Positions 54,320-64,000 of a stretch of 64,000 bases of DNA are shown one piece after another. Position 1 is the first letter of the stretch, and every line of letters starts with the position of its first letter. The translations under genes and the position numbers were made by a program. Under the pieces are notes generated by a model, which was given only the letters and a program-made list of their open reading frames with translations, was not told the origin of the DNA and did no database searches. Source of the stretch: Nitratireductor kimnyeongensis (GTDB lineage Bacteria > Pseudomonadota > Alphaproteobacteria > Rhizobiales > Rhizobiaceae); assembly GCF_019891395.1 (NCBI RefSeq), contig NZ_CP078143.1:2369001-2433000 (forward strand), given 5' to 3'.

Positions 54320-54529
54320 ATGACTATTGGTACCGTAAAGTTCTTCAACGCCACCAAAGGTTTTGGCTTCATCGCGCCTGACAATGGCGACAATGATGTC
54401 TTCGTCCACATCTCTGCCGTTGAGCGTGCTGGCATGCAGAACATCGTGGAAGGCCAGAAGCTGAGCTTCGACATTGTTCAGGACCGTCGGTCCGGCAAAA
54501 GCGCTGCAGACAATCTGCAGGCTGCATAG
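54320..54529 (+). CDS. Cold-shock protein (CspA family)
   Basis: 69 residues. Single OB-fold nucleic-acid-binding domain with RNP1 KGFGFI (14-19) and RNP2 VFVHIS (27-32), start MTIGTVKFFNATKGFGFI and end NLQAA. These proteins bind single-stranded RNA or DNA and act as RNA chaperones. Monocistronic, with a long upstream region and an intrinsic terminator downstream. Confidence 0.96.
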   Translation: MTIGTVKFFNATKGFGFIAPDNGDNDVFVHISAVERAGMQNIVEGQKLSFDIVQDRRSGKSAADNLQAA

Positions 54530-54587
54530 TTTTCATTTCTGCGGCGTGACCACGGATGTACTGGCACGCTGTATTGAGATGATCAGG

Positions 54588-54615
54588 AAGGTCGGGTTAG
54601 CGCCCGGCCTTTTTT
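54588..54615 (+). terminator. Intrinsic terminator after the cold-shock gene
   Basis: AAGGTCGGG (54588-54596) pairs with CCCGGCCTT (54603-54611, one G-T pair), followed by TTTT. Confidence 0.85.
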
Positions 54616-54641
54616 GCGTTTGCTCTTTGGTTCGGATTTCT

Positions 54642-56489
54642 TCAGCTCTGGTGAGCTGGGCCGGAAGCACCGTTTCCAGCATGGTCCTCCCACACCATGT
54701 GCCCGTCGCCAATGTCGCGCGCGATCTGCTGCTGCGGCACATGGTCGAGTTCATGCACAGGGCTTGGCAAATCCTCGGCCCTTTCCATGAAGGCGCGGCG
54801 CGGGCGTGAGGGATCGGCCACCGGTACCGCCGCCATCAGTTTTTTCGTGTAATCATGCTGCGGGTTCTCGAAAATCTGCGCCCGGCCGCCCATCTCCACG
54901 AAGCGCCCCATATACATCACCGCGACGCGGTGGCTGATCTGCTCCACCACGGCCATGTCGTGCGAGATGAAAAGATAGGACATACCCGTCTCGTTCTGGA
55001 TGTCCTGCAACAGATCGAGCACCTGCGCCTGAATTGAAACGTCGAGTGCGGCTACCGATTCATCCGCCACGATCAGTTTTGGCGACAATGAAAGCGCGCG
55101 GGCGATGCAGATGCGCTGGCGCTGGCCGCCGGAGAATTCATGCGGATAGCGCCGCATTTGGTCGGTTGAAAGCCCGACGCGCTTAAAGAGATAGGCAACC
55201 CGGTCTTCCAGCTCGCTGCCGCTTGCAAGCCCGTGAATTTGCAGTGGCTCAGCCACCAGATCGCCCACCCGCATGCGCGGATCGAGCGAGGCATAGGGGT
55301 CCTGAAAGATCATCTGCACATCGCGCAGCACCGGCCGCATGGCGCGCGGTGCAAGCCCGCGCGTGGAACGCCCGCCGACGCGAATGTCGCCCTTCCACGG
55401 GATCAGGTTCAACAGCGCCTTGCCGGTGGTGGACTTTCCGCAGCCCGATTCCCCCACCAGCGAAAGCGTCTCGCCCGGCCTGATGTCGAAGGAAACACCT
55501 TCCACTGCGTGCACACGTTGCACCGGGCGCTGAAGGATGCCGCCCTTGATGTCGAAGCGCACGGTCAGGTCTTTCACGGAAACCAGAGGTTCGGGAACAA
55601 GTGGCGTATCCGGCCCGGTTCCGGGTCGCGCTGCCACGCGCTTCGGCTCCGTGGTGCCGGTCATCTCGCCCAGCCTTGGCACTGCAGAGAGCAGCTCTTG
55701 GGTATAAGGGTGACGCGGTTCTGAGAAAATCACGCTGGCAGGGCTGTGTTCCACCATACGCCCGTGCTGCATCACCAGCACATCGTCTGCCATCTCGGCC
55801 ACCACGCCCATATCATGGGTGATCATGATGACAGAGATGCCGAGATCGGCCTGCAGCTTGCGGATCAGCGCCAGTATCTGTGCCTGCACGGTTACGTCGA
55901 GCGCTGTGGTGGGCTCGTCGGCAATCAGGATCTGCGGGCTTTGGGCCAGCGCCATGGCGATGACCACACGCTGGCGCATGCCGCCGGAAAGCTCATGCGG
56001 ATATTGTTTCAAGCGCCGTGCCGGCTCGGGGATCTGCACCTGATCCAGCAGTTCCAGCGCGCGGGCGCGGATTGCACTGTCGGAAAGTCCCCCATGGGCG
56101 GAAATCGCACCGGAAAGCTGCTTGCCGATGGAAAGCACCGGGTTGAGCGAGGTCATCGGCTCCTGAAAGATCATGCCGATATGCTGCCCACGCACCTGCC
56201 GCATTTCGGTTTCCGGAAGGGCAAGAATGTCCCGCCCCGCCAGCATGGCGGTGCCGCCTGAAACCCGTGCCATGGGTTTTGGCAAAAGCTGCATGAGGGA
56301 AAGCGCGGTCATAGATTTGCCGGAACCGCTCTCGCCCGCAATGCACAGTGTCTTTCCGCTCTCCAGCGTGAAGGACAGATCGTCGACGACCGTGCGCGCG
56401 CCTGCTGGCGTGGCCACCTGCACGGTGAGCCCACTCACCTCCAGAAGGCCGGTAGCTGAAGTGATGTCTTTGGCACGCGCTTTGGTCAT
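54642..56489 (-). CDS. Fused dipeptide/oligopeptide ABC transporter ATP-binding protein (DppD-DppF fusion)
   Basis: 615 residues with two complete ATPase domains. First: Walker A GESGSGKS, signature [16 protein letters not shown], Walker [13 protein letters not shown]. Second: GESGCGKST, FSGGQRQRICIARAL, LIVADESVAALD. A DppD/OppD C-terminal extension follows each (HPYTQELLSAVP; HDYTKKLMAAVPVADP). The Walker B Glu of the second domain is followed by Ser-Val rather than Pro-Thr, as often in DppF. It is the last gene of the amide/peptide operon and energises the two permeases encoded upstream. Confidence 0.94.
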   Translation of the reverse strand: MTKARAKDITSATGLLEVSGLTVQVATPAGARTVVDDLSFTLESGKTLCIAGESGSGKSMTALSLMQLLPKPMARVSGGTAMLAGRDILALPETEMRQVRGQHIGMIFQEPMTSLNPVLSIGKQLSGAISAHGGLSDSAIRARALELLDQVQIPEPARRLKQYPHELSGGMRQRVVIAMALAQSPQILIADEPTTALDVTVQAQILALIRKLQADLGISVIMITHDMGVVAEMADDVLVMQHGRMVEHSPASVIFSEPRHPYTQELLSAVPRLGEMTGTTEPKRVAARPGTGPDTPLVPEPLVSVKDLTVRFDIKGGILQRPVQRVHAVEGVSFDIRPGETLSLVGESGCGKSTTGKALLNLIPWKGDIRVGGRSTRGLAPRAMRPVLRDVQMIFQDPYASLDPRMRVGDLVAEPLQIHGLASGSELEDRVAYLFKRVGLSTDQMRRYPHEFSGGQRQRICIARALSLSPKLIVADESVAALDVSIQAQVLDLLQDIQNETGMSYLFISHDMAVVEQISHRVAVMYMGRFVEMGGRAQIFENPQHDYTKKLMAAVPVADPSRPRRAFMERAEDLPSPVHELDHVPQQQIARDIGDGHMVWEDHAGNGASGPAHQS

Positions 56490-56499
56490 GGGGCCCTTC

Positions 56500-57444
56500 T
56501 CAAGAGAAAACGATGCGCGGGAAGTAGAACGAAATCACCCAGTTGGGCTGGTCGACGATCTCGCTGATGCGCAGGTCGCCGCATACCGAACACAGCATAT
56601 AGGCGTCCTCGGGCGAGAGTCCGCGCGTGGCGCACAGAAGGTCGATCATGCCGGAAAGGGCGGCGCGCGCTCCTTCCATGAGGTCGGAACCGATGCCCGT
56701 CGTCACCTCATAGCCTTCCGCATCCAGATGCCGCGTCACCGGCCCCGGTGTGGTGAAACGCGGCATGGCAAGATTGGCATCCTTCACCACGTCGAGCTTT
56801 ACCGCCACATTCATCTGGCTCTCAATGGCGGTGCCGCACACCTCGCCATCACCCTGGGCAGCATGCGTATCGCCGATGGAGAACAGCGCGCCCTCCACCT
56901 CGACCGGCAGATAAAGCGTGGTGCCCGCTGCCAGATCGCGAATGTCGAGATTGCCCCCCATGCGCCGCGGTGGCACCACGGAATGCAGCCCCGCTTCCGC
57001 CGGTGCCAGACCGATGGTTCCGGCGAAGGGTTTGAGCGGAACACGGCCATGTTCGCCGAAGGCAGCCGGCGCGAGGCTTGCCGTTTCATAGTTCCATAGC
57101 GTCAGCGCCGGGTCCTTGAACTGGTCCGCCAGAAGCCCGAAGCCGGGAATATTCGCCGTCCAGCCGAAGCCGGACGGTTTGAACGATAAGATTTCCACCT
57201 TCAACGCATCGCCGGGCTTGGCCCCATCCACATAGATGGGGCCATTGACCGGATTGACCTTGGAGAAATCCAGCGTGGTGATGTCATCCACGGTGCTGTC
57301 GGGTGAAAAATGGCCGGAGCCGGAATCCAGACATTCAAATTCCAGCGTTGAGCCCGGCGTCACCCTTTCTGCGGGCGGGATCGAATGATCCCACCCGAAA
57401 TGGTGATGACGCCCGTGGATGGTGTAGTCGCAGTTACTGCACAT
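56500..57444 (-). CDS. Acetamidase/formamidase family protein
   Basis: 314 residues from the ATG at 57444; starts at 57453 or 57465 would overlap the binding-protein gene. It matches the FmdA/AmdA zinc-dependent amidase family: YTIHGRHHHFGWDHSIPP, VNPVNGPIYVDGAKPGDALKVEIL, GGNLDIRDLAAGTTLYLPVEVEGALFSIGDTHAAQGDGEVCGTAIE and the C-terminal SVCGDLRISEIVDQPNW. It releases ammonia from formamide, acetamide or related amides. Encoded within an ABC importer operon led by an AmiC/AmiR pair, so amide breakdown after uptake is the likely role. Confidence 0.9.
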   Translation of the reverse strand: MCSNCDYTIHGRHHHFGWDHSIPPAERVTPGSTLEFECLDSGSGHFSPDSTVDDITTLDFSKVNPVNGPIYVDGAKPGDALKVEILSFKPSGFGWTANIPGFGLLADQFKDPALTLWNYETASLAPAAFGEHGRVPLKPFAGTIGLAPAEAGLHSVVPPRRMGGNLDIRDLAAGTTLYLPVEVEGALFSIGDTHAAQGDGEVCGTAIESQMNVAVKLDVVKDANLAMPRFTTPGPVTRHLDAEGYEVTTGIGSDLMEGARAALSGMIDLLCATRGLSPEDAYMLCSVCGDLRISEIVDQPNWVISFYFPRIVFS

Positions 57445-59062
57445 CTTTGGCATAAACCTCGTCATAGTGGACGGGAATGTGCACCGGATCGACGAACAAC
57501 TTGTCGTCGCCGCCGATGCGTTCGGAACGGATGGTGAAGCGCTCTTCGTTGAAGATCGGCGCCCATGGCGCGTCTTCCATCACTTTCAGATAGATATCGC
57601 GCCACATAACCTCGCGCTCGCCGGCTTTGGCCGGGTCGACCATGGCATCGGCGTCCTTGGCCATGGCATCGAGATCCTCGTTACAATACCAGGCCCAGTT
57701 CCAGCCGCCCGGCACCGCGCCGTCACAGCCGAGGATCGGACCGTAGAAGTTGGACGGATCGGGGAAGTCGGCAATCCATGCCATGCCGCCCGACCAGATC
57801 ATCGGAGCCTGATCTTCCTCGCCGCCTGCCGCGATCACATTGGCCTGCGCCAGTGACTTGATCGAGGCGTTGATGCCGATGGCCTTCAGATCCTGCTGAA
57901 TTGCCTGCGCGATGCGTGGCTGCGGGTCGGTGTTCATCACATAGAGCTCGGTCTCGAACCCGTCGGCAAGCCCGGCCTCGGCCAGAAGCGTCTTTGCCGC
58001 TTCCGGATCATAGGCATAGCCCTCGTAATCCTTGGCATAGCCCGGCATGGAGGGCGGCAGAGGTTGGTTGGCGGCAACAGCACGGCCATTGATGATACGC
58101 AGAATGCGGTCCTTGTTGATGGCCATGTTCACGGCCTTGCGCACTTCCGGTTTGTCGAAGGGCTCCATCTTCACATTCATGGTCACATAGCCGGTGTGTA
58201 GCTGGCCGCCCTGAATGATCAGATCCTTGAATTTGGGGTCGTTCTTCACCTCGATGAACTTCGCCGGCGGAATGCCGTCGCCCGGTACGTCCACTTCGCC
58301 ATTTTGCAGGCGCAGAAGCGCAACCACCGGCTCCTGTCCGACCTCGAAGATGATCTGGTCGAGTTTCGGCACGCCAGGGTTCCAGTAATCCTCGAACCGC
58401 TCGAACACGAGGCGCTGGCCGAGCGTCCATTCGGAGAGCTTGAAAGCGCCGGAACCGACCGGATGCTTGCCGAAATCAGCTCCGTGTTTCTCCACCTCTT
58501 CCTTGGGCACCACATGGGCGAAGTTCAGCGCCAGCACATGCAGGAAGGTCGCGTCGGGGCGGGAGAGCTCGAACTTGATGGTGTGGTCGTCCACCACGGT
58601 GATGCCGGAGAGCCCATCCGCATCGCCGCTGGAGGCATCCTCAAAGCCCTTGATGGAACCGAAGAAGCCTGCGCCCGGGCTCTGGGTCTTCGGGTTCACC
58701 GTGCGCTCGATGGAGTACTTCACATCCCCGGCGGTCAGATCGCGGCCATTGTGGAATTTCACGCCGTCGCGCAGCTTGAAGGTGAAGACAGTGCCGTCGT
58801 CGGAAATCTCGTAGGATTCGGCGATCTCCGGGCGCAGTTCGGTCGTGCCCGGCACATAGTCCATCAGCCCGTCAAACAGCGATTTGATCATCGACCAGTT
58901 CTGCCAGTCATAGCCGATAGCCGGATCGAGCGTGGAGACATCATCCTTGTAGGTCACGGTCATGGAGCCGCCCTGCTTGATGTCTTCTGCAAGTGCAGGG
59001 GCAAGCATGGCGGAGGTGGAAAGGGCAGCGGCGGCAACGCCGGCCAGAAGCAGTTTTCTCAT
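57434..59062 (-). CDS. ABC transporter substrate-binding protein, peptide/DppA type (family 5)
   Basis: 542 residues. Signal peptide 1-25 (LLLAGVAAAALSTSAMLAPALAED), then the family 5 fold (GGSMTVTYKDDVSTLDPAIGYDWQNW, YEISDDGTVFTFKLRDGVKFHNGRDLTAGDVKYSIER, HPVGSGAFKL). Binds peptides, amides or other substrates in the periplasm. In the same operon as two permeases, an amidase and a fused ATPase. Ligand unknown, though the context suggests an amide. Confidence 0.93.
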   Translation of the reverse strand: MRKLLLAGVAAAALSTSAMLAPALAEDIKQGGSMTVTYKDDVSTLDPAIGYDWQNWSMIKSLFDGLMDYVPGTTELRPEIAESYEISDDGTVFTFKLRDGVKFHNGRDLTAGDVKYSIERTVNPKTQSPGAGFFGSIKGFEDASSGDADGLSGITVVDDHTIKFELSRPDATFLHVLALNFAHVVPKEEVEKHGADFGKHPVGSGAFKLSEWTLGQRLVFERFEDYWNPGVPKLDQIIFEVGQEPVVALLRLQNGEVDVPGDGIPPAKFIEVKNDPKFKDLIIQGGQLHTGYVTMNVKMEPFDKPEVRKAVNMAINKDRILRIINGRAVAANQPLPPSMPGYAKDYEGYAYDPEAAKTLLAEAGLADGFETELYVMNTDPQPRIAQAIQQDLKAIGINASIKSLAQANVIAAGGEEDQAPMIWSGGMAWIADFPDPSNFYGPILGCDGAVPGGWNWAWYCNEDLDAMAKDADAMVDPAKAGEREVMWRDIYLKVMEDAPWAPIFNEERFTIRSERIGGDDKLFVDPVHIPVHYDEVYAKDVQ

Positions 59063-59108
59063 CTCAAGTGTTCCTTTCTCTGGTGCTGCACATTTTGTTG
59101 GTCTTGCA

Positions 59109-60029
59109 TCAGCGCAGCTTGATGCGCGGGTCGATCAACGGGGTGATCAGATCGGCAAGAAGATTGCCGAGCACGATGGCGCAGGCTGAAACCAGTGTGA
59201 CGCCCATGATGATGGGAATGTCGACGCGCTGGATCGCCTGCCAGGCGAGCTGGCCGATGCCCGGCCAGCCGAACACGCTTTCCACCACCACAATGCCCGA
59301 CATGAAGAGCCCGATGTCGATGCCGATCATGGCGATGATGGGCAGGATGGCGTTGGGCAGCGCATGTTTGAAAAGCACCTTTGCGCGGGTCACACCGGTG
59401 GCGCGGGCGGTGCGGATATAATCCTGCCGGAGCACGTCGATCAGCGATGAGCGCATCATGCGCGAATACCAGCCGGCCCCCAGGAAGCCGAGCGTGATGG
59501 AGGGCAGGACAAGATGTGCGAAGGTGCCGTAGCCGCCGATCGGGAACCAGCCGAATTTCACTGCAAACACGTAGAGCAGCAGAATGCCGATCACGAATTG
59601 CGGGGCCGACACGCCCACGAAAGAGGCAATCATCAGCGTATCATCGGTGCGCGAGCCGCGTTTCAACGCGGCCACCACGCCCATGGTCAGGCCCAGCACG
59701 AGTTCGCAGAAGATTGCTCCCACCATCAGGAGAAGGCTCGCGGGCAGCCGCGAGGCGATGAGTTCGGAAACCTCTGTCTTTTGCAGATAGGAGCGGCCGA
59801 GATCGCCATTCAGAAGTCCGCCGAGATAGCGCAGATATTGCTCATAGAAGGGCAGGTTAAGCCCAAGCTGTTCGCGGATGTTCTCCACCGTCGCGGCCGT
59901 TGCACTGCGGCCGGCGATCTGGCGGGCCGGGTCAGCCGGCACGAGATAAAGCAGCACGAAGGTCACGAAGCTGATGCCCAGCAGGATCAGCGCGGTCTGG
60001 ATCAGGCGGCGGGCGACATAGGCAAGCAT
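59109..60029 (-). CDS. ABC transporter permease, DppB type
   Basis: 306 residues, six membrane segments. The start YVARRLIQTALILLGISFVTFVLLYLVPADPAR is the classic DppB opening, and the EAA loop is ARATGVTRAKVLFKHALPNAILPII. It touches the upstream permease gene at TGATG (ATG 60029). Confidence 0.95.
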   Translation of the reverse strand: MLAYVARRLIQTALILLGISFVTFVLLYLVPADPARQIAGRSATAATVENIREQLGLNLPFYEQYLRYLGGLLNGDLGRSYLQKTEVSELIASRLPASLLLMVGAIFCELVLGLTMGVVAALKRGSRTDDTLMIASFVGVSAPQFVIGILLLYVFAVKFGWFPIGGYGTFAHLVLPSITLGFLGAGWYSRMMRSSLIDVLRQDYIRTARATGVTRAKVLFKHALPNAILPIIAMIGIDIGLFMSGIVVVESVFGWPGIGQLAWQAIQRVDIPIIMGVTLVSACAIVLGNLLADLITPLIDPRIKLR

Positions 60030-60919
60030 CAGTGGCGCCCCTGCTGTGTCGGGTCGAGAATGTCGCGCAGCGCATCGCCCACAAGGTTGAAACCCAGTGC
60101 CAACGCCAGAATGGCAACACCCGGAATGAAGACGAGCCAGGGCGCGGAGGTGAAATAGGTCTGGTTCTCGAAGATGATGTTGCCCCAGGAGGGAATGGGC
60201 GGCTGAACGCCGATGCCAAGGAAGGAAAGCGTTGCTTCAAGGAGAACTGTGGTGGCGATGCCGAGCGTCGCCCAGACGATGATGGTTGACAGAAGATGCG
60301 GCAGGATATGGCGGAACAGGATGCGGCCCGCACCTGCGCCCATGGCGCGCTCTGCCACAACGAAATCACGTTCGGCGATGGAGCGCGTCTCGGTATAGGT
60401 CACGCGGGCGATCTGCACCCAGTTCACCATCGCGATCACCATGGCCACGATCCACAGGCTGGGGCTGAAGATCGCTGCCAGAACAATGGCCAGAAGCAGC
60501 GCCGGAAAAGCCATCATCAGATCTGTGAATCGCATCAGCACCGTGTCGACCCAGCCGCGGAAGTATCCAGCGGAAATGCCAACCGCCGAGCCGATCACCA
60601 CGGCGATGCCATTGGCCACAACGCCGATGATCAGGGATGTCTGCGCACCATAAATCAGGCGGCTGAAGAGATCGCGCCCAACGAGATCGGTGCCGAACCA
60701 GAACTGCGCATTGGGTGGCAGCGGAGCACCCTCGATGGTCAGCCCCTCGAAGAACTGCTCATAGGGATTGTAAGGCGCAAGCCACGGAGCGAAGACTGCG
60801 GCTAGCACCACCACCGCGATGATGATCAAGCCTGTCAACGCCAGCGGCCGCCGCAAAAGGCGCACCATCACCGAAGGCGTCTGCGTCCCGGTGTTTTTTT
60901 CAGCGACCGTTTGTGACAT
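60029..60919 (-). CDS. ABC transporter permease, DppC type
   Basis: 296 residues from the ATG at 60919. N-terminal LLRRPLALTGLIIIAVVVLAAVFAPWLAPYNPYEQ, FWFGTDLVGRDLFSRLIYGAQTSLIIG and the EAA loop VVAERAMGAGAGRILFRHILPHLLSTIIV are typical. The start lies inside the last 20 bases of the upstream ANTAR gene, so transporter and regulator are translated from one message. Confidence 0.94.
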   Translation of the reverse strand: MSQTVAEKNTGTQTPSVMVRLLRRPLALTGLIIIAVVVLAAVFAPWLAPYNPYEQFFEGLTIEGAPLPPNAQFWFGTDLVGRDLFSRLIYGAQTSLIIGVVANGIAVVIGSAVGISAGYFRGWVDTVLMRFTDLMMAFPALLLAIVLAAIFSPSLWIVAMVIAMVNWVQIARVTYTETRSIAERDFVVAERAMGAGAGRILFRHILPHLLSTIIVWATLGIATTVLLEATLSFLGIGVQPPIPSWGNIIFENQTYFTSAPWLVFIPGVAILALALGFNLVGDALRDILDPTQQGRH

Positions 60920-61517
60920 TCGTCCGTCCGTTTGTGTCCAGGCTTGCAATGATGCCGGCGGCAGCCTTCTCGATGGAGCGACGCTCACCCATGGCGGTCT
61001 TGCGAAGATGGTTGTAGGCGGTTTCGGCATCACAATTGTGCTTCAGCATCAAGATGGCGGTCGCCTCTGCCACAACCTGTCTCTTGGCAAGTTGATCCTT
61101 CAGTCGGGCGATCTCTTCCGTCTGGGCCGTGCGCCGCAGAAAAGCCTGACTTGCCACGACAAGTGCACTGTAGAGCCCGGCGCTGCCGATCGGCTTCAGA
61201 AGCTGAGCATCCGCCCCTTGCCCGATCGTCCAGGCAATGCGGCCTGGAGCTTCGGAGCCGATCAGCGCTATGATGGGCATCGGCGCAAGCCCTGGCGCCC
61301 AGGGAAATTGCTCGTCATGGCCCATATCGGCATCGATCAGGAGCACGTTAAAGTCCCGCATCGCCTCCTGATCTTCAAGCGTCGGCCAGGCCTGTTCAGC
61401 GGCGATGCCGATGCGTGCGCATTGCGCGGTCAGCGCATCCACGTTCTGGTGCGGCCGATGCAGGATCAGCGCCCGCCAGCCGACGAAATTGGGTGTATGG
61501 GCAAGGGCCGGGCTCAT
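60900..61517 (-). CDS. amiR: ANTAR-domain antiterminator (AmiR-like)
   Basis: 205 residues. The N-terminal about 125 form a pseudo-receiver like that of AmiR (RALILHRPHQNVDALTAQC, NVLLIDADMG, PMPIIALIG, DAQLLKPIG). A coiled coil (TAQTEEIARLKDQLAKRQVV) leads into the ANTAR RNA-binding domain (AEATAILMLKHNCDAETAYNHLRKTAMGERRSIEKAA). ANTAR proteins bind paired hairpins in nascent RNA and prevent termination. Its start overlaps the amiC-like stop (ATGA). In Pseudomonas AmiC holds AmiR inactive until amide binds; the same logic is inferred here. Confidence 0.9.
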   Translation of the reverse strand: MSPALAHTPNFVGWRALILHRPHQNVDALTAQCARIGIAAEQAWPTLEDQEAMRDFNVLLIDADMGHDEQFPWAPGLAPMPIIALIGSEAPGRIAWTIGQGADAQLLKPIGSAGLYSALVVASQAFLRRTAQTEEIARLKDQLAKRQVVAEATAILMLKHNCDAETAYNHLRKTAMGERRSIEKAAAGIIASLDTNGRTNVTNGR

Positions 61518-62674
61518 CGCACCACCCTCAGCTGCCGCGCATCGGCGGCGGTGCTGGCATAGAGCCGGTCAAGCGGCGTTGCCGTCAGGAACGGGTCCGG
61601 CGCGATAGCACTCGGGCAATGGTGCACGATCTCGAAATCGCCATCGGCACGGGTGCGGCCGATATGAGCGTGGAGACTGACGTGATTGGTCGCAGGGTCG
61701 ACGCGCAGCGAGCCAAGCGGAGTTGCCGTCCCGTGATCGCGCACGGCTTCCAGAACGCTCTGCGCATCGTCGCTTCCGGTGCGGCGGATTGCATCGGCAA
61801 TCATCACCACGGCGGCATAGGCCTGTACAAAAAATGCGTCCGCCACCTGCGTGGGGTTCTCGGCTTTCATCCGGGCGGCAAAGCGGTCATTCCCTTCGCT
61901 TGCCAGCGCCCGGAAATAGCTCGATACGGTGTATTGTCCCTCGGCGATGGTGCCGAGCCGCGTGGTCTCGTTCTCACATAGATTGCAGCTTACCACCGGG
62001 CAGTTTTCCGGCAGGAAAGCCGGATCTTCCTTCCCGAGCGTCTGATAGGCGGCGAGGAAAGCGTATGAGGAATTGCCGATCAGATTGTTTAGGATGAAAT
62101 CCGGACGCTTTTCGCGGATTTCATCAATCAGATGCCCAATGTCATGATCGCCGATAGGCACGTAGCGTTCGCCCAGAACGCTACCGCCGGAGCGGGTCAG
62201 CACATCGCGCGCAATGCGATTGGTTTCCCACCCCCAGATATAGTTCGCGCCCGCCAGGAAACCCCGCGCGCCAAAGCGTGGCACGATATAATCGAGCAAC
62301 GGCACGAGCTGCTGGTTGGCGCAGGCGGCGATATAGACGAGGTTTTCCGAGACCTCGAAGCCCTCATAGACACATGGATACCATAGAAGGGCGTCGAGTT
62401 TTTCGACGACCGGGATCACCTCCTTGCGGCTCCATGAGGTGGTGCAGCCGACAATGTGCTGTGCGCCCGTCTGGCGGATCAGGTCGCGGCAGAGTTCCGC
62501 ATAGCGGTCGGCATTGCCCTTCGGGTCGGCGTGGTGGGCTTCAAGCCGGAAGGGGTAGCTCTCATCGGCGTTGATGTCGGTCACTGCCGCCAGCGCACCA
62601 AAATAGCCCTGTTCCGCCGGGCGGCTATAGCCGCCGGATCGCGAAAACAGAACGCCGATCGAATAAGTGTTCAC
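61514..62674 (-). CDS. amiC: AmiC-like amide sensor / transporter substrate-binding domain protein
   Basis: 386 residues from the GTG at 62674, chosen because GGGGAA lies upstream at the right distance and upstream codons fall in the leader hairpin. No signal peptide, so cytoplasmic, as for AmiC. Type I periplasmic-binding fold of the amide/urea group (YSIGVLFSRSGGYSRPAEQGYFGA, GCTTSWSRKEVIPVVEKLDALLWYPCVYEGFEVSENLVY). AmiC binds short amides and sequesters AmiR; the amiR-like gene overlaps its end. First gene of a seven-gene operon. Confidence 0.88.
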   Translation of the reverse strand: MNTYSIGVLFSRSGGYSRPAEQGYFGALAAVTDINADESYPFRLEAHHADPKGNADRYAELCRDLIRQTGAQHIVGCTTSWSRKEVIPVVEKLDALLWYPCVYEGFEVSENLVYIAACANQQLVPLLDYIVPRFGARGFLAGANYIWGWETNRIARDVLTRSGGSVLGERYVPIGDHDIGHLIDEIREKRPDFILNNLIGNSSYAFLAAYQTLGKEDPAFLPENCPVVSCNLCENETTRLGTIAEGQYTVSSYFRALASEGNDRFAARMKAENPTQVADAFFVQAYAAVVMIADAIRRTGSDDAQSVLEAVRDHGTATPLGSLRVDPATNHVSLHAHIGRTRADGDFEIVHHCPSAIAPDPFLTATPLDRLYASTAADARQLRVVR

Positions 62675-62685
62675 ACTCGTTCCCC

Positions 62686-62733
62686 AAAACGCAAAGGGCC
62701 CCGGCGGGAACAACAATATTCCCGGCGAGGCCC
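62686..62733 (-). terminator. Leader terminator hairpin upstream of amiC (candidate antitermination target)
   Basis: On the minus strand a long stem spans 62733-62696: outer GGGCC/GGCCC, then a nearly continuous inner stem ending GGGAA/TTCCC around an 8-base loop, with one mismatch and one G-T pair. It is followed by TTTGCGTTTT (62695-62686). It stands between the promoter and the amiC start codon, where an ANTAR-controlled terminator is expected. The two A-xx-G hexaloop hairpins typical of ANTAR targets were not clearly resolved. Confidence 0.65.
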
Positions 62734-62759
62734 AGATGCCAAAATCTTATTATGGCTTA

Positions 62760-62787
62760 AGCCTAGCTGGCGAAACGAAACTGTCAA
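62760..62787 (-). promoter_or_regulatory. Promoter of the amiC-amiR-ABC-amidase operon
   Basis: On the minus strand, TTGACA (62787-62782) is followed after 16 bases by TAGGCT (62765-62760). This would give a leader of about 80 bases that contains the terminator hairpin. The -10 is imperfect. Confidence 0.5.
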
Positions 62788-63040
62788 GCCATGTGAGCAG
62801 GATGATTTTATCGCTCGTTTCACGCGCGCGAAAATAGGGATCAGGCGAGGGCAGAACCAATTTCACTCGTCTTCAATGATAATTTATTGACAAAATGTTT
62901 GGAAATGTTTTCTTTTGCCGGCAGGGCCGCTCACGAATGCGCGGAAACCATGCGTCTCCCAACAGTCTGGTCTAAAGACTAGGGCCAGCCGCAGCCGGGT
63001 TCAATGGGTTTTTGGGCCTGTCCTTCAGATTGGAGTTTCT
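62788..63040. other. Intergenic region between the amiC promoter and the second peptide ATPase gene
   Basis: With the leader this makes about 366 bases without a gene. AT-rich tracts near 62870-62910 (AATTTATTGACAAAATG includes a TTGACA) may hold the plus-strand promoter for the downstream ATPase gene. TGGAG lies five bases before that start. No repeat was recognised. Confidence 0.4.

Positions 63041-64000
<960 letters not shown>

What the first reader, a model, noticed from the sequence alone, without database searches (positions are those of the whole stretch)
54642..62787. AmiC/AmiR antitermination pair heading an operon with a complete peptide-type ABC importer and an amidase
Seen: one minus-strand run of seven overlapping or closely spaced genes, amiC-like, ANTAR amiR-like, two Dpp permeases, DppA-type binding protein, acetamidase/formamidase, fused DppDF ATPase. 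Known: in Pseudomonas amiEBCRS the amide-bound AmiC releases AmiR, which reads through a leader terminator before amiE, and uptake is by AmiS. Here the regulators come first, amidase is of the FmdA class, and the transporter is a peptide ABC system. Inference: a whole uptake-and-hydrolysis system for an unidentified amide (perhaps a short peptide amide or formamide derivative) under ligand-gated antitermination, with positive feedback since amiC/amiR lie after the terminator.
Basis: partly seen in the sequence, partly recalled or inferred. Interest (0 to 1): 0.75.

Follow-up and report, generated by a model that had tools for sequence, protein, structure and literature searches.

The report
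Amide uptake operon with one-hairpin switch
A Nitratireductor bacterium carries a ready-made operon that probably imports and splits amino-acid amides, and the RNA switch in front of it seems to work with one hairpin where the textbook version of this switch has two.

Summary
Seven minus-strand genes (amiC, amiR, dppC, dppB, dppA, fmdA, dppDF) form one operon in a Nitratireductor genome. The order recurs in 27 of 27 related loci (dppDF in 26, one contig ends first). The "unidentified amide" is probably an L-amino-acid amide: DppA has a close ortholog in the PDB, 8UPI, solved with "aminoserine".

The new part is the leader. A sigma-70-like promoter is followed, about 13 nt after the inferred start, by one 3-bp hexaloop hairpin whose 3' arm is part of the 5' arm of a strong intrinsic terminator. 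This matches the antitermination hairpin (P2) of ANTAR targets, but the recruitment hairpin (P1) is missing, and so is loop base G4, required in EutV. Many related AmiR-dpp leaders keep a P1-like hairpin. On an AmiR tree of 103 rows the P1-less state needs at least six changes, four forced by well-supported branches. None of 40 P1-less leaders has G4.

I read it as AmiC/AmiR antitermination through a single hexaloop. Start site, binding, induction and substrate are untested. New variant of a known kind.

The parts
62782..62787 (-). -35 box TTGACA
   Evidence: TTGAC within 39-60 nt upstream of P2 in 31 of 31 type-A leaders, against 5 per 6389 positions elsewhere upstream (typing itself asked for a TTGAC- or TTGA-like box within 140 nt)
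62760..62765 (-). -10 box TAGGCT (16-nt spacer); start of transcription inferred near 62753
   Evidence: TSS inferred as the seventh base after the -10 box, not measured; the stricter consensus scan did not list this promoter
62741..62753 (-). 13-nt stretch between inferred TSS and P2, with no hairpin of 3 or more Watson-Crick pairs at loops of 4-9 nt (slot where P1 would lie)
62729..62740 (-). P2-like antitermination hairpin GGC[AUCUGG]GCC, loop 62732-62737
   Evidence: arms invariant and A1 at least 90% conserved in 22 of the 28 distinct type-A leaders
62696..62733 (-). intrinsic terminator stem-loop, 5' arm overlapping P2; T-rich tail 62686-62695
   Evidence: MFE -33.5 against -18.2 kcal/mol with P2 forced
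61514..62674 (-). amiC: Peripla_BP_5 amide sensor (GTG start), no evident signal peptide
   Evidence: AmiC 1PEA, E=8.2e-52
60900..61517 (-). amiR: AmiR_N pseudo-receiver plus ANTAR RNA-binding domain
   Evidence: AmiR 1QO0, E=1.9e-13; only ANTAR match in genome
60029..60919 (-). dppC permease (start ATG 60919)
59109..60029 (-). dppB permease
57434..59062 (-). dppA: SBP_bac_5 binding protein, ortholog of 8UPI
56500..57465 (-). fmdA: FmdA_AmdA amidase
54642..56489 (-). dppDF: fused double ATPase

Best explanation
An inducible operon for uptake and hydrolysis of L-amino-acid amides as a nitrogen source. DppABC-DF imports the amide, FmdA splits it to the amino acid and ammonia, and cytosolic AmiC senses it. 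Without ligand AmiC holds AmiR and the short leader folds into the terminator ahead of amiC. With ligand AmiR is freed, binds the single hexaloop GGC[AUCUGG]GCC as it leaves the polymerase, and blocks the terminator because the hairpin's 3' arm is part of the terminator's 5' arm. Since amiC and amiR lie behind the terminator, induction feeds itself. Unlike the published ANTAR terminator targets there is no upstream recruitment hairpin and no G at loop position 4. Shown: genes, gene order, promoter-hairpin-terminator layout, lack of a stable P1, loop composition. Inferred: start site, AmiR binding, ligand gating, amidase substrate.
For: Families; order conserved 27 of 27. Terminator is the default fold, with the P2 3' arm paired into it in 30 of 31 type-A leaders. 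P2 arms invariant and A1 at least 90% conserved in 22 of 28 distinct type-A leaders. -35 box 39-60 nt upstream, 31 of 31. P1-less state: 31 of 93 typed leaders, then 40 of 103 rows, at least 6 changes on the AmiR tree, 4 forced by starred branches. EutV binds isolated P1 and P2 with similar affinity (PMC8934654, passages). DppA ortholog 8UPI, 941 bits over 516 residues, solved with 'aminoserine'. AmiC position 83 (Tyr in P. aeruginosa AmiC) is changed in 79 of 79 AmiCs of types A-C, 71 of them with dppC as the next gene, but is Tyr in 14 of 14 of the outside branch, as expected if the ligand differs from acetamide.
Against: No expression, binding or start-site data. The P2 stem never varies in the type-A alignment, so there is no covariation support. 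Sixteen of 31 type-A leaders have at least a 3-pair hairpin, mostly A/U, in the P1 slot, and 9 of 31 one with 4 pairs; one, L017, reaches -2.4 kcal/mol. Conversely the P1 call in relatives is not always strong: 25 of 26 type-B and 19 of 19 type-C stretches hold a hairpin of at least 4 pairs, but only 9 and 12 fold better than 95% of shuffles. L077's minimum-energy fold has P2 rather than the terminator. Published work found one hairpin bound more weakly and, for EutV, P1 needed (PMC3369931, PMC7496416, passages). The window's U tract is interrupted, and the generic scans list neither this promoter nor the full terminator.
Confidence: 0.65

Rival explanations
1. The element is an ordinary dual hairpin: a weak A/U-rich P1, or one from a start site further upstream, is stabilised by AmiR and was missed.
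For: Hairpins of at least 3 pairs, mostly A/U, in 16 of 31 type-A leaders, for example Brucella/Ochrobactrum and Stappia rows. Start sites are inferred only.
Against: No such hairpin in the window, the other Nitratireductor rows (L002-L008) or the Sinorhizobium/Ensifer rows (L010, L011, L026). Pre-P2 length is 7-23 nt in 40 P1-less leaders. TTGAC lies 39-60 nt upstream of P2 in 31 of 31. P1-bearing relatives have hairpins of at least 4 pairs in 25 of 26 type-B leaders.
Confidence: 0.18
2. The terminator is real but AmiR does not act on this hairpin; the conserved GGC-N6-GCC is a site for another factor and AmiR acts elsewhere.
For: No binding data; the loop lacks G4, the base that EutV contacts (PMC8934654).
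Against: The only ANTAR match in the genome lies in the operon. Of 20 own-genome matches to promoter box plus hexaloop (16 for the reversed control) only the operon leader's best terminator candidate has 6 or more T in the tail; L159 has 5 T at -30.8 kcal/mol. The same hairpin position, with A1 in 57 of 60 P1-bearing and 39 of 40 P1-less leaders, occurs before amiC across the family.
Confidence: 0.12
3. The importer handles short peptides or simple amides (formamide, acetamide), not amino-acid amides.
For: NCBIfam's best matches for permeases and binding protein are generic peptide, dipeptide or nickel families below their cut-offs; the amidase family is named formamidase/acetamidase.
Against: DppA is a close ortholog of 8UPI, bound to 'aminoserine'. 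AmiC position 83 differs from the acetamide sensor.
Confidence: 0.13

Closest known systems
Pseudomonas aeruginosa amiEBCRS operon (AmiC/AmiR, leader of amiE)
   Same: AmiC-like sensor next to an ANTAR AmiR; leader terminator
   Different: Regulators come first; FmdA-class amidase; peptide-type ABC importer instead of AmiS; leader lies before amiC; the amiE leader has two A1/G4 hairpins (PMC3369931, passages), this one has one without G4
Dual-hexaloop ANTAR targets (EutV/eut, NasR/nasF)
   Same: Hexaloop hairpin with 3-bp stem and A1 that excludes an intrinsic terminator
   Different: No P1; loop AUCUGG has U4 and G5
Single-hexaloop ANTAR sites suggested in PMC8934654 (passages read): EutX small RNA, Mycobacterium tuberculosis stem-loops that do not always obey the dual motif
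   Same: One hexaloop may suffice for binding
   Different: The passages concern sequestration or sites over ribosome-binding sites and 5' UTRs; here the single hexaloop overlaps a terminator
Mesorhizobium sp. AP09 binding protein 8UPI with its FmdA_AmdA-linked ABC system (recalled: Frkic et al. 2024, Biochemistry; text not held, nothing read)
   Same: Orthologous binding protein; amidase of the same family beside the importer (the latter recalled)
   Different: As recalled, that work treats ligand binding; I do not know whether it describes the AmiC/AmiR genes or the leader
NasS-NasT nitrate system (PMC6759348, passages)
   Same: Sensor protein releases an ANTAR antiterminator
   Different: Senses nitrate; the sensor belongs to another protein family (recalled)

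Membership tests
ANTAR dual-hexaloop antiterminator element (Ramesh 2012) | ANTAR-domain regulator in the genome | tested here: met
   PF03861 in amiR, E=5.9e-13; one match in genome
ANTAR dual-hexaloop antiterminator element (Ramesh 2012) | P2 hairpin, 3-bp stem and hexaloop, overlapping an intrinsic terminator | tested here: met
   (predicted folds)
ANTAR dual-hexaloop antiterminator element (Ramesh 2012) | A at loop position 1 | tested here: met
   window A; 39 of 40 P1-less leaders
ANTAR dual-hexaloop antiterminator element (Ramesh 2012) | G at loop position 4 | tested here: not met
   window U; 0 of 40 P1-less and 6 of 60 P1-bearing leaders; 14 of 14 in the outside AmiR branch
ANTAR dual-hexaloop antiterminator element (Ramesh 2012) | Second hairpin P1 upstream of P2 | tested here: not met
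ANTAR dual-hexaloop antiterminator element (Ramesh 2012) | Regulator binds the leader and allows read-through | not testable with these tools
   needs in vitro transcription
Pseudomonas-type ami operon | AmiC-AmiR pair | tested here: met
Pseudomonas-type ami operon | amiE nitrilase-class amidase in the operon | tested here: not met
   the amidase is FmdA_AmdA
Pseudomonas-type ami operon | AmiS amide channel in the operon | tested here: not met
   the transport genes are ABC permeases, binding protein and ATPases; the rest of the genome was not searched for AmiS
8UPI-type amino-acid-amide importer with FmdA_AmdA amidase | Binding protein orthologous to 8UPI | tested here: met
   E=1.6e-282, residues 27-542
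8UPI-type amino-acid-amide importer with FmdA_AmdA amidase | FmdA_AmdA amidase in the same operon | tested here: met
8UPI-type amino-acid-amide importer with FmdA_AmdA amidase | Binds L-amino-acid amides | not testable with these tools
   only the entry title of the ortholog was seen

The most novel reading that the evidence does not exclude
ANTAR antitermination can run on a single promoter-proximal hexaloop with no recruitment hairpin and without G4. P1 was lost several times in AmiR-dpp operons of alphaproteobacteria (at least four changes of state are forced by starred branches), so P1 is dispensable, and these AmiRs read a different loop code (A1 and usually G5).
Probability: 0.48. Interest if true: 0.7.

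Novelty: new variant of a known kind. Interest (0 to 1): 0.55.

Why it matters
The EutV structure paper (PMC8934654) holds that an ANTAR dimer must contact each hexaloop individually to prevent termination, calls P1 the recruitment hairpin and G4 the only base-specific contact, and asks how far single hexaloops act. This family supplies natural leaders with and without P1 under related AmiRs, which makes the question directly testable. Searches for ANTAR regulons that demand two A1/G4 hairpins would miss these operons. It also gives a probable inducer class, amino-acid amides, for a nitrogen-scavenging operon found in many alphaproteobacterial genera.

Tried and rejected
Rfam at gathering scores found nothing at the leader. 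The promoter/terminator scan listed pieces of the terminator only, did not list the TTGACA/TAGGCT promoter, and found no more terminator-like sites than shuffles (7 against a mean of 8.9). RNAalifold on 22 leaders returned only the invariant P2 stem, no covariation. The DppA model was poor (mean pLDDT 45.9), so no structural claim rests on it; only the title of the sequence-identified entry 8UPI is taken. A residue code for G4 (EutV K149 and E160; numbering moved by counting from the conserved Met172, EutV itself not aligned) was considered: the 29 main-clade type-A AmiRs have T149 (29 of 29) and A, P or S at 160 (26, 2, 1), with Arg142 kept in 29 and Tyr or Phe at 164. But five P1-bearing type-B rows also have A or S at 160 and four have T149, so it is not diagnostic. 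Paper searches for 8UPI, aminoserine and amino-acid amides found no such paper; the DOI tried was not held. In the listings I saw no report of a single-hairpin ANTAR terminator leader; this covers only that open-licence library and the entries shown. Supplementary figures were not seen.

Rows dropped before counts: 123 locus records gave 106 distinct upstreams; L001 (own locus) was dropped, leaving 105; 11 had no P2-plus-terminator candidate; L079 and L080 were found but not typed; L073, L035 and L130 were typed by eye and five outside-branch rows without a promoter were labelled by hand, giving 93 typed. For four outside-branch rows (L050, L051, L138, L140) the loop counted is the upstream hairpin. 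In one search L136 was left out (AmiR cut), L077 (same locus as L180), and L171, L177, L178, L190 as unclear; L169 and L174 were set to P1-bearing by eye. Alignment A3 holds 22 of the 28 distinct type-A leaders.
Full report
Observation. The set reads as one transcript: amiC/amiR, amiR/dppC, dppC/dppB and dppA/fmdA overlap, and the other gaps are 46 and 10 nt. amiC most likely starts at GTG 62674; the longer TTG ORF begins inside the terminator. AmiC and FmdA have no evident signal peptide while DppA begins with one (read from sequence, no predictor run). The genome is a Nitratireductor by its relatives: the best named matches of AmiC are Nitratireductor loci at 94%. One ANTAR domain was found in it.

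Conservation. AmiC found 27 loci in named genomes. All 27 have amiC-amiR-dppC-dppB-dppA-fmdA in order on one strand, and 26 also have dppDF (the other contig ends in fmdA). They include Nitratireductor, Stappia, Sinorhizobium/Ensifer, Mesorhizobium, Rhizobium, Shinella, Ochrobactrum/Brucella, Paracoccus and a Rhodospirillaceae MAG.

Substrate. DppA matches PDB 8UPI over residues 27-542 with 941 bits. The entry title is 'Structure of a periplasmic peptide binding protein from Mesorhizobium sp. AP09 bound to aminoserine'. I recall, without having read it here, a 2024 Biochemistry paper (Frkic et al.) that reports binding of L-amino-acid amides and not the free acids by this protein and links it to operons with FmdA_AmdA amidases. 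The library did not hold it. AmiC is a relative of P. aeruginosa AmiC (1PEA, E=8.2e-52). At the position of Tyr83 (a pocket residue, recalled) 79 of 79 AmiCs of types A-C differ (Thr in 30 of 31 type-A rows), while 14 of 14 in the outside branch keep Tyr; Ser85 is kept in 93 of 93 and Tyr150 in 92 of 93. Of the 79, 71 have dppC as the next gene found. That fits a sensor retuned from acetamide to another amide. It is inference.

Leader. In the window TTGACA (62787-62782), a 16-nt spacer and TAGGCT (62765-62760) are followed by a 13-nt stretch after the inferred start, then GGC[AUCUGG]GCC (62740-62729), whose last bases begin a terminator (62733-62696) with tail TTTGCGTTTT. The terminator is the default: -33.5 against -18.2 kcal/mol with the small hairpin forced. 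In 31 of 31 type-A leaders TTGAC lies 39-60 nt upstream of the hairpin, against 5 per 6389 positions elsewhere upstream; the typing asked for such a box within 140 nt, but the 27 named loci showed it before any typing. In an alignment of 22 of the 28 distinct type-A leaders the only invariant columns are the two arms of the small hairpin and one G of the terminator; loop A1 and G5 are at least 90% conserved and no column before the hairpin is. The finder looks for GGC/AGC arms, but the GGC-N6-GCC hairpin was visible upstream of amiC in all 27 named loci. The stem never varies, so covariation cannot support it.

What is missing. Published ANTAR targets are two hexaloop hairpins, P1 and P2, each with A1 and G4 (PMC3369931 and PMC8164766, passages read; the latter notes more than 50% conservation of A1 and G4 in actinobacteria). 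EutV stacks Tyr164 on a flipped G4 held by Arg142, Lys149 and Glu160, and P1 is called the recruitment hairpin; the authors state that a dimer must contact each hexaloop individually to prevent termination, yet find similar affinity for isolated P1 and P2, redefine the minimal binding motif as one hexaloop and ask for further work (PMC8934654: outline with abstract, passages, sections 21 and 24). NasR binds one hairpin more weakly (PMC7496416, passages). The counted loop has G4 in 0 of 31, 1 of 26, 5 of 21 (L073 had no finder hit) and 14 of 14 respectively, and G5 in 30 of 31 type-A and 19 of 26 type-B leaders. The outside branch thus serves as a positive control for the finder.

How firm is the P1 call? 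The window, L002-L008 and the Sinorhizobium/Ensifer rows have none.

Repeated loss. On the first AmiR tree (92 rows) 29 type-A rows form one starred clade (100/92) whose sister L115 and further neighbours keep P1. A search of 295 genomes of the family of G351 (unnamed; its AmiR groups with that of Paracoccus L027) found a match in 32; of the 30 loci fetched plus L027, 27 were used, 16 with P1 and 11 without. On the joint tree of 103 AmiRs (40 P1-less, 63 P1-bearing) the label needs at least 6 changes, of which 4 are forced by starred branches; P1-less clades of 29 (99/95), 5 (100/99) and 3 (100/99) rows stand apart (its bootstrap had not fully settled). Some changes could be regains. P1-less leaders leave 7-23 nt between inferred start and P2; P1-bearing ones 20-77 nt (58 measured) (P1-less was defined by fold energy above -2 kcal/mol).

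Limits. Start sites are inferred. In this genome 20 places match the promoter box plus hexaloop (16 for the reversed control), and only at the operon leader does the best terminator candidate carry 6 or more T (L159 has 5). So AmiR seems to control only its own operon, but targets without this exact layout would be missed.

Verdict. An ordinary-looking catabolic operon whose substrate class is largely settled by a solved ortholog, under an unusual, repeatedly evolved, single-hairpin version of ANTAR antitermination. The anatomy is well supported, the mechanism is inferred.

Noticed in passing
54497-54618 (+): Rfam ar35 (alphaproteobacterial sRNA) at 47 bits, just over its gathering score of 45, right downstream of dppDF and beside a cold-shock-protein-like reading frame on the + strand (the frame was read by eye).
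   Followed up: no
63041-64000 (+): A second, divergent peptide-type ABC operon begins upstream of the leader (ATPase-like frame read by eye); in L002-L004 dppDF-, dppA-, dppB- and dppC-like genes (27-53% identical to those here) lie upstream on the other strand.
   Followed up: partly
62871-62920: An A/T-rich block between the two divergent operons is nearly identical in L002, L003 and L004; perhaps the other operon's control region.
   Followed up: no
L050, L051, L138, L140: A different AmiC-AmiR-fmdA-like operon whose leader has P1 and P2 hexaloops about 52-54 nt apart with a predicted hairpin between, although a 20-nt linker extension abolished EutV antitermination.
   Followed up: partly
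L040, L042: Type-C leaders carry, further upstream, a stretch that repeats (L040) or resembles (L042) the P2 loop, separated from P2 by another hairpin.
   Followed up: no
L119: Its P1 is GGC[ACUUGG]GCC, the same 12 bases as the P2 of P1-less L016, which suggests that P1 and P2 share one loop code in this family.
   Followed up: no
L002:13113-14737: dppA of Nitratireductor aquibiodomus is matched in two overlapping pieces, possibly a frameshift or assembly error.
   Followed up: no
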